Positions 10,355-15,868 of a stretch of 64,000 nucleotides of DNA are shown piece after piece; position 1 is the first letter of the stretch; each line of letters begins with the position of its first letter. Made by a program: the position numbers and the translations under genes. The DNA lies in the IMG/VR virus record IMGVR_UViG_3300011115_000874, positions 96,799-160,798 of that record, one strand, 5' to 3'. The notes under the pieces were generated by a model. That model was not told the DNA's origin, made no database searches, and saw only the letters and a program-made list of their open reading frames with translations. Source of the stretch: a virus.

Positions 10355-10849
10355 TCACTTGTCTAGAAACTGTTTAAGATTAGGTCTAAAATAGTTTATT
10401 GATTTCATTACCTTACGATCTCGAGAGCGATATACTACATAGTAATCACCTTGTTTTTCATAATGGCAACGTTCACCTTGTTCTTGTTCTCTAAGACGAA
10501 CAGTGAAATTAGCTTCCTCTTCTGTCTTACAAGCTTTACTCATGTTTGAAGCTTGAACCTCAGCATACGCGGGTAAGATTTTATCTTTTAGACCATGAAG
10601 CATAGCTCCATTACCTAATGAAACATAAGTAATATCACAAAGTGCATCTAACACTTCTACAACATTTCCTGTTTCACAAGCGTGTTTATATTCCTCTAAT
10701 TCCTCTAGAATAAAATCATAAACAAACATCCATTCTTTTTTATCTGGGATAGTAGGTTCATAGTTATTTGGTTTACCCATTGTAGCGTTAAATTCCTCTA
10801 CCTCGCTAACAAATGGAACATAATTTTCTTTAGATTGAGACATGGCCAT
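10355..10849 (-). CDS. MazG/HisE-like nucleotide pyrophosphohydrolase
   Basis: A 164-residue protein with the all-alpha NTP pyrophosphatase signature: FILEELEEYKHACETGN (EExxE-like metal-binding helix, residues about 46-62), then EVLDALCDITYVSLG, where E..D of the second helix completes the metal site. The family hydrolyses nucleoside triphosphates to monophosphates; phage members may trim dNTP or alarmone pools. The C-terminal part (about residues 110-164) is extra and unassigned. The start overlaps the end of folE by 20 bases, so it belongs to the nucleotide/7-deazaguanine operon. ATG at 10849 or 10843 is possible. Confidence 0.75.
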   Translation of the reverse strand: MAMSQSKENYVPFVSEVEEFNATMGKPNNYEPTIPDKKEWMFVYDFILEELEEYKHACETGNVVEVLDALCDITYVSLGNGAMLHGLKDKILPAYAEVQASNMSKACKTEEEANFTVRLREQEQGERCHYEKQGDYYVVYRSRDRKVMKSINYFRPNLKQFLDK

Positions 10850-11525
10850 TATTTATTTTAAGTGAATCAAAAAATTCTTTACGTGCTAAATTATCGTTTT
10901 CCATAAACACACCTGATGCTTTAGTAGTAACCATTGCAGCACCTTGATGTTTAATACCTCTACAACTAACACAATTGTGAGTTGCAACTACAGTAACAAT
11001 AACACCATGATTACCTTCACAAACTTTATTTACTGCTTGATGAATTGCTGCTGTTAATTGTTCTTGGATAGCACCTCTACGACCAAAGTGTTCTACAATA
11101 CGATTTAATTTAGATAAACCAATTACTCGACCTTCAGCACCTGCAATGTAACCAATATGTACTACACCTCTAATTGTTTGGTGATGGTGTGAACACATTG
11201 AAGTTAATTGAATATTACGTTCAATAATTACCCCATCATAACCATCCGATGGGAATGAAGTAATATCAGTAAATCCATTATAGCGACCAGCCCATAGATC
11301 ATTAACATATGCTTTAGCTACACGACGAGGTGTATCAGCAGAGTTAGGATCGTTTTTCCAATCACATTTTAATGCTGTTAAGAAGTTACCAAAATGTTCA
11401 GTTGCTTCTTCAATCATTTGTTGCTTTTCTTCATCCGTTAATGGGCGATCTAAAGCTGATCCATTTGCTAGACCTGTATTCACACACTCAATGTCGTTGT
11501 GAAATTTTCTTCTATTATTTTCCAT
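10830..11525 (-). CDS. folE: GTP cyclohydrolase I (FolE)
   Basis: A 231-residue enzyme converting GTP to dihydroneopterin triphosphate, the first step towards 7-deazaguanines (and folate). The zinc and catalytic motif MCSHHHQTIRG is at about residue 110, RVIGLSKLNRIVEHFGRR follows, and the second motif is HNCVSCRGIKHQGA, with the third zinc cysteine near 188. All catalytic elements are present. With queD, queE, queC and a dpdA-like gene just upstream, its product most likely feeds DNA modification. It has its own start-proximal element TATATTAGGTTATATG, the same as gene 45. Confidence 0.96.
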   Translation of the reverse strand: MENNRRKFHNDIECVNTGLANGSALDRPLTDEEKQQMIEEATEHFGNFLTALKCDWKNDPNSADTPRRVAKAYVNDLWAGRYNGFTDITSFPSDGYDGVIIERNIQLTSMCSHHHQTIRGVVHIGYIAGAEGRVIGLSKLNRIVEHFGRRGAIQEQLTAAIHQAVNKVCEGNHGVIVTVVATHNCVSCRGIKHQGAAMVTTKASGVFMENDNLARKEFFDSLKINNGHVSI

Positions 11526-11541
11526 ATAACCTAATATATTA
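11526..11541 (-). promoter_or_regulatory. Start-proximal promoter-like element of folE
   Basis: Minus strand AATATATTAGGTTATATG to the start. It matches the element of gene 45, but without the preceding terminator hairpin, so folE may have a separate transcript within the modification cluster. Inference. Confidence 0.4.
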
Positions 11542-11549
11542 ATTTATTT

Positions 11550-12059
11550 CTAGACTGCCAAAATATATGGCAAACTCCTTTTCTTACCTAAATCATCATC
11601 CATTCCAAACCCAACTACCCATTCATCCTCAAGAACAAAACCGTAAAGTGAACCTGTAGGCATATCTACTTCATTAATATAACGTTTAATTAAAGTGACC
11701 ATTTGAACACTTGCTGGGTCAAATTGGTAGAAATGATTTGCTAATGCATTCATTGTTATTCCTGAGTCGTAAATGTCATCTATAAGATAAACATGCTTAC
11801 CAGTTACATCTACTGATTTGTCTAGTATCATATTTAGGTCACCTCGTTCTTTACCTTCATATGATCTTACTTTTACAAAATCACATTCTGGATCTAGTGA
11901 GGATAATTTTTCAACTAGTTTAGAATAAAAAACAAACCCACCATTTAGTACACATACTAAAACAATAGGAATTTTTTCTGATTTATGGCGATTTAAAATT
12001 TGTGTAGCGATAGAATCAATTCTTGATTCAATAATTCTATTTTCAAATAATACTTTCAT
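11550..12059 (-). CDS. hpt: Hypoxanthine/guanine phosphoribosyltransferase
   Basis: A 169-residue type I phosphoribosyltransferase. The PRPP-binding motif is VYLIDDIYDSGITMN at about residues 90-104, the N-terminal flexible loop region is VLNGGFVFYSKLV, and the base-site region is FVLEDEWVVGFGMDD near the C-terminus, all as in bacterial Hpt. It salvages hypoxanthine or guanine to IMP or GMP. In this cluster it could raise GTP for FolE or recycle host guanine; that link is inferred. The start overlaps the end of the thioredoxin gene by 17 bases. Confidence 0.9.
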   Translation of the reverse strand: MKVLFENRIIESRIDSIATQILNRHKSEKIPIVLVCVLNGGFVFYSKLVEKLSSLDPECDFVKVRSYEGKERGDLNMILDKSVDVTGKHVYLIDDIYDSGITMNALANHFYQFDPASVQMVTLIKRYINEVDMPTGSLYGFVLEDEWVVGFGMDDDLGKKRSLPYILAV

Positions 12060-14791: not shown

Positions 14792-14792
14792 T

Positions 14793-15056
14793 TTAACAAT
14801 ATTTTTTATATAAATTTTCAATAATTTCTATTTCTTCATTACTCATTGAGTAAAACTTTGAAGATAATCCAATTAATTTATCATGGAATTGAGATTCCAA
14901 TAATGATGTAGTTGGTGGGATATCATAACCTTCTAATTTGGTTGTTATGGTTGTATATCCATCATCTTCTAGCCATTCGGCCATTTTTTGTTTTTCATAA
15001 GAACCCATGTTATCATAAACATCATCTAAATCTACGTCAATACTAATCCAACTCAT
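14793..15056 (-). CDS. Hypothetical acidic protein, 87 aa
   Basis: Not recognised. MSWISIDVDLDDVYDNMG is strongly acidic, followed by KQKMAEWLEDDGYTT and a C-terminal helix SNEEIEIIENLYKKYC. It lies between the dpdA-like gene and queC, with an AAATAAAAGTTATG start context, and its stop abuts the queC start. Its place suggests a link to the modification system, but nothing in the sequence shows one. Confidence 0.6.
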   Translation of the reverse strand: MSWISIDVDLDDVYDNMGSYEKQKMAEWLEDDGYTTITTKLEGYDIPPTTSLLESQFHDKLIGLSSKFYSMSNEEIEIIENLYKKYC

Positions 15057-15061
15057 AACTT

Positions 15062-15868
15062 TTATTTTACTATTTTATCTAAACGATTAATTTTTCTAAA
15101 TTTATTTACATTGTAATGTAAAGCATACCAGTTAATATCTTCAGGAGCGCGATTCATAACATGGTCAATTTTAGTAATTGGTTTTTCATCTAAACCATGT
15201 TCCTTATACATTTTATCTTCCATTGCAGCCATAATTGGATTTGAAGTATCTATACTTTCAATGAATGGGTAATTCTGGTGGAATAAAAACTCTTGAGGAG
15301 CAGCACATCCAAGTAAGTGAACTCTATCACTAGATTGAATAACATCGTTATTATACAACTTACCTATAACGTTTACTCGACCCATTGCAGTAGAAATTGC
15401 TGGTAGTGGGTGTATGAAATGGTTTTTATAATAACCCGCACCATATGAAAATGCTATTTTCTTATAACCTAATGCTTTGTATTTTAAATAACATTCAGCT
15501 GCTTCATCAATGTTAGTTGCTTGAACTACTGCTACTTTAGTAGTATAGTGAGGTAATTTAATTTTAGCCCATTCAACAGCATTATCAATAGATGCTTGCA
15601 TATCTTGCCATACATCAGGTACTATAAATTCATTTGGTTCAAAATAATTAACCCAATGTAATAGACGTTCTGTTTCATAGGCATGACCTAATTCATGTAA
15701 ACTATTATCCATGATAATATAACGACCATCTTTCTTTGCTTGATCAAAATACTTAAAGTATTCATACTCACTATCTAGTAAGTGAGGCAAACAATAATCA
15801 TAATCATTGAATGTTTGGGAAATGTTTAGTACTGCTAATGGTACTTCATGTGAGACTTTTACTTTCAT
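15062..15868 (-). CDS. dpdA: DpdA-like DNA 7-deazaguanine transglycosylase
   Basis: A 268-residue TIM-barrel protein of the tRNA-guanine transglycosylase superfamily, most like phage DpdA, which exchanges guanine in DNA for a 7-deazaguanine. Visible features: IIMDNSLHELG (D54, candidate general acid/base position), EFIVPDVWQD (D85), VAVVQATNIDEA (the Q-G-x-N-like strand) and HLLGCAAPQEF with IESIDTSNP (S-I-D-T/S-N-P, candidate nucleophile region). It lacks the CxCxxC zinc motif of bacterial tRNA TGT, which argues for a DNA role. It heads the run with queC, queD, queE and folE. An ATATTTATATT late-element variant is 13-23 bases upstream. The family assignment is by motif recall, not a search. 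Confidence 0.72.
   Translation of the reverse strand: MKVKVSHEVPLAVLNISQTFNDYDYCLPHLLDSEYEYFKYFDQAKKDGRYIIMDNSLHELGHAYETERLLHWVNYFEPNEFIVPDVWQDMQASIDNAVEWAKIKLPHYTTKVAVVQATNIDEAAECYLKYKALGYKKIAFSYGAGYYKNHFIHPLPAISTAMGRVNVIGKLYNNDVIQSSDRVHLLGCAAPQEFLFHQNYPFIESIDTSNPIMAAMEDKMYKEHGLDEKPITKIDHVMNRAPEDINWYALHYNVNKFRKINRLDKIVK

What the first reader, a model, noticed from the sequence alone, without database searches (positions are those of the whole stretch)
10830..15868. Phage-encoded 7-deazaguanine DNA modification block
Seen: FolE, QueD, QueE, QueC homologues and a TIM-barrel DpdA-like transglycosylase in one tight minus-strand run. Known: FolE-QueD-QueE-QueC makes preQ0 from GTP, and phage DpdA proteins insert 7-deazaguanines into DNA, blocking restriction enzymes. 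No QueF or bacterial tRNA-type TGT (CxCxxC zinc motif) is visible. Inference: the phage replaces part of its guanine with a 7-deazaguanine, product uncertain (see QueC note).
Basis: partly seen in the sequence, partly recalled or inferred. Interest (0 to 1): 0.85.

Follow-up and report, generated by a model that had tools for sequence, protein, structure and literature searches.

The report
Phage guanine-swapping DNA modification cassette
A bacterial virus carries a complete gene set predicted to swap guanines in its DNA for the modified base preQ0, which should hide the DNA from host defences; two parts look new: a guanine-recycling enzyme tied to the pathway, and a QueC enzyme that has lost the zinc site thought to define its family.

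Summary
The block is real. A minus-strand run (10355-15868) encodes a DpdA-like transglycosylase, QueC, QueD, QueE, FolE, plus genes absent from the finding: a guanine/hypoxanthine phosphoribosyltransferase (HPRT), a MazG-like hydrolase and two thioredoxins. The record is probably a complete phage genome (160,798 bp, 127-bp terminal repeat) without QueF, formyltransferase or TGT. The 268-aa protein folds confidently (pLDDT 92); its 50 best PDB matches are all TGT or DpdA, and its catalytic aspartates are invariant. It belongs to the DpdA branch of Flavobacterium phage immuto and Campylobacter CP220. Predicted product: preQ0 in DNA (not measured).

Two points look new. (1) QueC lost all four zinc cysteines but keeps every other motif. 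The same zinc-free QueC is the only QueC in 18 of 18 cellular genomes checked, all with TGT or arcTGT, so it probably still makes preQ0. (2) In 78 of 78 related cassettes a purine phosphoribosyltransferase of one of two subfamilies sits between QueE and FolE, and in other DpdA phages one is fused to FolE. I infer that guanine released by DpdA is salvaged to GTP and reused by FolE. Verdict: new variant of a known kind.

The parts
15062..15868 (-). DpdA-like DNA guanine transglycosylase, 268 aa, zinc-free, TIM barrel
   Evidence: AlphaFold pLDDT 92.4; Foldseek top hits TGT and DpdA 7ui4; profile matches 7ui4 over HLLG..P..F...SIDS; LDN[SG] and HLLG...D[TS] in 99/99 homologues, CxCxxC in none
14793..15056 (-). 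87-aa protein of unknown function, absent from most relatives
13979..14791 (-). [quoted passage not shown] ORF opens at 14821 (TTG), ATG at about 14791 preferred
   Evidence: PF06508 E 2e-39; 62.8% to immuto QueC; all four Zn cysteines replaced, other QueC motifs kept
13828..13992 (-). 54-aa basic protein, conserved in window-type cassettes
13581..13835 (-). Thioredoxin-like protein A (WCTPC)
   Evidence: PF00085 E 4e-13
13097..13579 (-). QueD (6-carboxytetrahydropterin synthase)
   Evidence: PF01242 E 2e-10; PHROG QueD E 1e-30
12318..13100 (-). [quoted passage not shown]
   Evidence: PHROG QueE E 4e-48; 68% to immuto QueE
12043..12318 (-). Thioredoxin-like protein B (WCGGC)
   Evidence: PF00085 E 6e-12
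11550..12059 (-). HPRT-type purine phosphoribosyltransferase; proposed guanine salvage enzyme
   Evidence: TIGR01203 E 4e-35, 121 bits (cut-off 150); PDB best hits HGXPRT/HPRT E 1e-24; PRPP motif YLIDDIYDSGIT intact
10830..11525 (-). FolE (GTP cyclohydrolase I)
   Evidence: PF01227 E 6e-42; 61% to immuto FolE
10355..10849 (-). MazG-like NTP pyrophosphohydrolase, overlaps FolE; best conserved gene of the cassette (77% to immuto)
   Evidence: PF01503 E 1e-9

Best explanation
The cassette rewrites guanines in the phage's own DNA. FolE, QueD, QueE and a zinc-free QueC turn GTP into the free base preQ0 (7-cyano-7-deazaguanine). The DpdA-like enzyme then exchanges guanine for preQ0 in finished DNA: one aspartate (D207) attacks the sugar, guanine leaves, and preQ0 takes its place. 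With no QueF, formyltransferase or fused amidotransferase, preQ0 (dPreQ0) is the predicted end product; this should block restriction enzymes and other proteins that read the guanine N7 edge. The HPRT enzyme is proposed to capture the guanine released at each exchange (guanine + PRPP to GMP); host kinases return it to GTP, the substrate of FolE, so guanine cycles through the pathway instead of accumulating. Shown here: gene content, folds, conserved motifs, genome completeness, conserved linkage. Inferred: the chemistry of the product, the extent of replacement, and guanine recycling.
For: Complete FolE-QueD-QueE-QueC-DpdA set in one run. DpdA: model pLDDT 92.4, top 50 PDB hits all TGT/DpdA, profile match to DpdA 7ui4 across the motif around the nucleophile, D54 and D207 invariant in 35 aligned sequences and motifs in 99/99. 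The minimal set FolE-QueD-QueE-QueC-DpdA gives dPreQ0 in phages Rosebush and CAjan (PMC6884629). No QueF, formyltransferase or TGT in a complete genome. Zinc-free QueC keeps counterparts of all four residues found essential in E. coli QueC (Y35, R99, Y131, Y189; PMC13329287), is the only PF06508 protein in 18/18 cellular genomes that have TGT or arcTGT, with QueF in all 8 bacteria, and accompanies a QueF in immuto-type phages (TIGR03138 E 4e-78). Guanine salvage: 78/78 cassettes have a purine PRTase between QueE and FolE, 53 Gpt-like and 25 HPRT; 57 distinct cassettes, two changes of type on the tree; PRPP motif intact in 90/92; a Gpt-like domain is fused to FolE in DpdA phages VpKK5, MMDA13 and ply2008005c and is matched under annotated FolE genes in other Pseudomonas, Xanthomonas and Vibrio phages.
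Against: No nucleoside analysis exists for this phage. QueC fails the zinc motif that is used to define its family. Five phages with distant DpdA of this branch (CP220, CC_R7, MA9V-3, Youna2, BSP7) have no PF00156 protein, so guanine salvage is not obligatory. The fused PRTase domains barely register in Pfam; they were recognised through the immuto protein and their motifs. The roles of MazG and the thioredoxins are unexplained.
Confidence: 0.7

Rival explanations
1. The zinc-free QueC makes something other than preQ0 (stops at the amide ADG, or decarboxylates or ignores CDG), so the DNA base is dADG, dDG or dCDG.
For: All four zinc ligands are lost in every phage member read; Campylobacter phages of the same DpdA branch carry dADG (cited in PMC6884629); a CDG decarboxylase (DpdL) is reported in the literature (from memory, paper not held).
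Against: Zinc-free QueC is the only QueC in 18/18 cellular genomes with TGT or arcTGT, 8/8 bacteria with QueF, and stands beside QueF in immuto-type phages; QueF needs preQ0. Catalytic residues are invariant.
Confidence: 0.18
2. The phosphoribosyltransferase and MazG act before replication: PRTase charges the deazaguanine base to a nucleotide, polymerase incorporates it, and MazG removes competing dGTP, as MazZ does in 2-aminoadenine phages.
For: PRTase and MazG are the most constant neighbours of FolE; the MazG-like gene is the best conserved (77%).
Against: A transglycosylase with intact catalytic residues is present in the same operon, which makes polymerase incorporation unnecessary; HPRTs contact the N7 of the base, which preQ0 lacks (general knowledge).
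Confidence: 0.07
3. PRTase and MazG are ordinary nucleotide-metabolism passengers, unrelated to the base exchange (this rival concerns only the recycling part of the best explanation).
For: Large phages carry many nucleotide genes; five related DpdA phages lack a PRTase.
Against: Two different PRTase subfamilies occupy one slot in 78/78 cassettes, and an independent Gpt-like domain is fused to FolE in other DpdA phages. HPRT of this type otherwise appears only in 18 of 50,697 phage records, most of them unannotated or host-like sequence.
Confidence: 0.25
4. The genes serve host tRNA queuosine, not phage DNA.
For: The FolE-QueD-QueE-QueC part is shared with queuosine synthesis.
Against: No TGT and no QueF in the genome; a DpdA-type transglycosylase is present instead.
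Confidence: 0.04

Closest known systems
Flavobacterium phage immuto (Immutovirus) deazaguanine cassette
   Same: QueE 68%, QueC 63%, FolE 61%, MazG 77%, DpdA and QueD 36% identity; zinc-free QueC; PRTase between QueE and FolE
   Different: Immuto adds QueF, a PurN-like formyltransferase and a P-loop kinase, and uses a Gpt-like PRTase; the window phage lacks the three extra genes and has HPRT
Campylobacter CP220-like phages (DpdA branch called DpdA3, name from memory)
   Same: 34% identical transglycosylase with the same catalytic motifs
   Different: Zinc-binding QueC (CP20), no PRTase, genes scattered; dADG reported (cited in PMC6884629)
dPreQ0 phages CAjan and Rosebush
   Same: Same minimal pathway set (PMC6884629)
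   Different: Different DpdA families
Canonical QueC (PF06508 cluster 1)
   Same: SGGxDS, YxQxHxxE, VPxRN, YPDC and the essential tyrosine in the zinc region (PMC13329287)
   Different: All four zinc cysteines replaced
FolE of Queuovirinae-type phages (VpKK5, MMDA13)
   Same: A purine PRTase is coupled to FolE in a DpdA phage
   Different: There it is a Gpt-like domain fused to FolE; here a separate HPRT gene next to FolE

Membership tests
DpdA / TGT superfamily transglycosylase | TGT-like TIM barrel | tested here: met
   Foldseek top 50 all TGT or DpdA, TMq 0.53-0.64
DpdA / TGT superfamily transglycosylase | Catalytic aspartates (general base and nucleophile) | tested here: met
   D54 and D207 invariant; assignment by motif position and 7ui4 alignment
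Bacterial tRNA-type TGT | CxCxxC zinc motif and PF01702 match | tested here: not met
   0 of 99 homologues; no PF01702 hit
DpdA | Inserts a deazaguanine into DNA | not testable with these tools
   needs biochemistry
DpdA3 subfamily | Homology to Campylobacter phage DpdA | tested here: met
   33.7% to CP220, E 4e-32; the subfamily name is from memory
Canonical QueC | C(x)8CxxCxxC zinc motif | tested here: not met
Canonical QueC | SGGxDS, YxQxHxxE, VPxRN, YPDC and essential tyrosine | tested here: met
   conserved residues in 21 sequences
Canonical QueC | QueC fold rather than QatC or Cap9 | tested here: met
   Foldseek best QueC 3bl5 and 2pg3, ahead of Cap9 and QatC; profile hits QueC only
HPRT (hypoxanthine-guanine phosphoribosyltransferase) | PRPP motif and HGPRT profile | tested here: inconclusive
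   Motif intact; TIGR01203 121 bits, below the 150-bit cut-off, but clearly the best family
Immutovirus-type cassette | QueF and formyltransferase | tested here: not met
   absent from the complete genome

The most novel reading that the evidence does not exclude
Phages that exchange DNA guanine in bulk run a closed guanine cycle: guanine expelled by DpdA is captured by a phage-encoded HPRT or Gpt-like enzyme, sometimes fused to FolE, and returned as GTP to make the next deazaguanine. Together with this, a zinc-independent QueC lineage, shared by phages, gammaproteobacteria and marine group II archaea, makes preQ0 without the metal site thought to define the enzyme.
Probability: 0.45. Interest if true: 0.75.

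Novelty: new variant of a known kind. Interest (0 to 1): 0.6.

Why it matters
Base exchange must release one free guanine per modified position: about 51,000 per genome copy here if all guanines are replaced, from the base composition. What happens to that guanine is not discussed in the papers I could read; a salvage enzyme fixed next to, or fused with, the enzyme that consumes GTP is a direct and testable answer. A zinc-free QueC that is the only QueC in whole genomes would change how the family is annotated: zinc-motif searches would wrongly call these organisms unable to make preQ0, and it gives a clean way to ask what the zinc does.

Tried and rejected
The weak QueF hit in this genome is FolE, which shares the fold. 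The DpdL idea for QueC (decarboxylase, from memory) was set aside because the same protein type is the sole QueC in organisms that use TGT and QueF. Restriction-site counts showed mild palindrome avoidance in G-containing and AT-only sites alike: uninformative. No solved MazG relative was found. Promoter-like matches did not exceed shuffles. In one search I labelled two zinc-free phage QueCs (MMDA13, Stenotrophomonas) as zinc-binding because of their names; one search corrects this and gives two zinc losses, not one. Searches of the held literature found nothing on PRTase in deazaguanine phages; the 2023 NAR paper on DpdA3, DpdL and formyl-preQ1 is not held, so anything from it is marked as memory.

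Full report
What is there. The window is bases 96,799-160,798 of a 160,798-bp virus record. The record begins and ends with the same 127 bases, so it is probably a complete genome. On the minus strand from 15868 down to 10355 lie, in order of transcription: a 268-aa DpdA-like protein, an 87-aa unknown, QueC, a 54-aa basic protein, a thioredoxin, QueD, QueE, a second thioredoxin, an HPRT-type phosphoribosyltransferase, FolE, and a MazG-like hydrolase overlapping FolE. The finding named five of these eleven; all five are correct.

The transglycosylase. Sequence profiles alone give only weak names (DUF6610, PHROG 19058). tblastn finds the immuto protein, annotated DpdA, at 36% and Campylobacter CP220-like proteins at 33-35%, then distant ones in Campylobacter CC_R7, Bacillus, Weizmannia and Chryseobacterium phages, whose neighbouring genes include deazaguanine genes. 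AlphaFold with 35 aligned sequences gives pLDDT 92.4, pTM 0.89; all 50 listed PDB matches are TGT or DpdA. A profile aligns to DpdA 7ui4 over 'HLLG..P..F...SIDS' (E 0.17 on its own, so it supports rather than proves). D54 and D207 are invariant; the LDN[SG] and HLLG...D[TS] motifs are in 99 of 99 homologues and the TGT zinc motif in none. Equating D207 with the TGT nucleophile and D54 with its general base is by motif position.

Two cassette types. From about 100 environmental viral loci annotated with profiles, two layouts emerge. Immuto-type: QueD-QueE-PRTase-FolE-MazG-DpdA-formyltransferase-kinase-QueF. Window-type: DpdA-QueC-thioredoxin-QueD-QueE-thioredoxin-HPRT-FolE-MazG, with none of QueF, formyltransferase or kinase. 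The window genome as a whole lacks QueF, a formyltransferase and TGT. The simplest reading is that immuto-type phages take preQ0 on to preQ1 and probably formyl-preQ1, while window-type phages stop at preQ0. The minimal gene set gives dPreQ0 in phages CAjan and Rosebush (PMC6884629).

A QueC without zinc. In the window, all four zinc cysteines are replaced, while the SGGxDS, YxQxHxxE, VPxRN and YPDC motifs remain. The replacing segment, TSYKP...SDYKSASSVER, is nearly invariant. All four residues shown essential in E. coli QueC (Y35, R99, Y131, Y189; PMC13329287) have counterparts that are invariant here. All QueC sequences read from the related viral loci lack the zinc motif. A genome scan found relatives in Cysteiniphilum, Facilibium, Thiotrichales, Legionella gresilensis and marine group II archaea, plus some phage-like contigs in metagenome bins; 79 of 80 lack the zinc motif. 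In 18 of 18 of the cellular genomes checked it is the only PF06508 protein, all 18 have TGT or arcTGT, and the 8 bacteria have QueF; QueD and QueE lie nearby in most. preQ0 for their tRNA must come from somewhere, and this protein is the only candidate. Its best PDB matches are QueC, ahead of Cap9 and QatC. A tree needs two zinc losses: this clade, and separately phages MMDA13 and ply2008005c. Caveats: several archaeal genomes are metagenome bins, completeness is not given, and uptake of preQ0 from outside is not excluded.

The phosphoribosyltransferase. The window protein is closest to HGXPRT/HPRT structures (E 1e-24) and to TIGR01203 (121 bits, below the 150-bit cut-off). Immuto's protein at the same position is of the Gpt/XPRT kind. 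Among 78 loci that show both QueE and FolE, every one has a PRTase between them: 53 Gpt-like (one doubled), 25 HPRT. For 75 loci that also show MazG, 57 distinct sequences, the tree shows two HPRT clades and a Gpt grouping with two changes of type; its starred branches force at least one, so the slot was refilled at least once by a different subfamily. These loci are one phage lineage, so 78 is not 78 independent events. Unexpectedly, searching phages with the immuto PRTase hit inside annotated FolE genes. In VpKK5, MMDA13 and ply2008005c the FolE protein is about 300 aa, FolE occupying the last 180, with a Gpt-like domain in front carrying the PRGG, VDD.ID[ST]G or DD[IL]ID[ST]G and W[VI]V.PWE motifs; the domain recurs in Pseudomonas, Xanthomonas and Vibrio phages under annotated FolE genes. 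These phages have another DpdA type next door. Brevundimonas phage MaInes has kinase-FolE-XPRT in a row and a QueC. Against generality: five other phages of this DpdA branch have no PF00156 protein.

How it probably works. Each base exchange frees a guanine. The genome has about 51,000 guanines counting both strands (composition); over a burst this is millions of molecules of a poorly soluble base (general knowledge). A PRTase beside or fused to FolE would turn guanine into GMP, which kinases return to GTP, the substrate of FolE. This is inference from linkage and fusion, not shown. MazG may tune nucleotide pools; its 77% conservation says it matters, but I have no evidence for its substrate.

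Novelty. Deazaguanine DNA modification in phages is known, and so is this DpdA branch. The zinc-free QueC clade and the PRTase-FolE coupling were not found in the papers I could search; many papers are not held, so priority is not established.

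Noticed in passing
13097-13579 versus L010, L011, L013, L014, L015: QueD is swapped: about 96-98% identical in L009, L017 and L018 but only 37-39% in five other loci whose flanking genes are mostly over 80-90% identical, so a distant QueD version was exchanged in place.
   Followed up: partly
L146, L147, L148, L163, L169, L202 and others: Marine group II archaeal zinc-free QueC carries a C-terminal domain that looks like methionine sulfoxide reductase B; the pattern CGWPxF is in 26 of 80 loci.
   Followed up: partly
12043-12318 and 13581-13835: Two thioredoxin-like genes with intact CxxC flank QueD and QueE, conserved in window-type cassettes; ribonucleotide reductase lies nearby (17699-20417), so their partner is unclear.
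   Followed up: no
L001:30570-31094, L020:15813-16355, L022:14507-14977, L024:7336-7899: A P-loop kinase-like gene sits beside DpdA in several phages of this branch but not in the window cassette; it could be a nucleotide kinase feeding the pathway.
   Followed up: partly
genome G014 (Legionella gresilensis), TGT match C9:17695-18807: The TGT match has an in-frame TAG stop; sequencing error or a broken gene.
   Followed up: no
genome G007 (L077), C1:146848-147228: Phosphoribosyltransferase-family match read through two in-frame TAG codons; possibly stop-codon reassignment in that phage.
   Followed up: no
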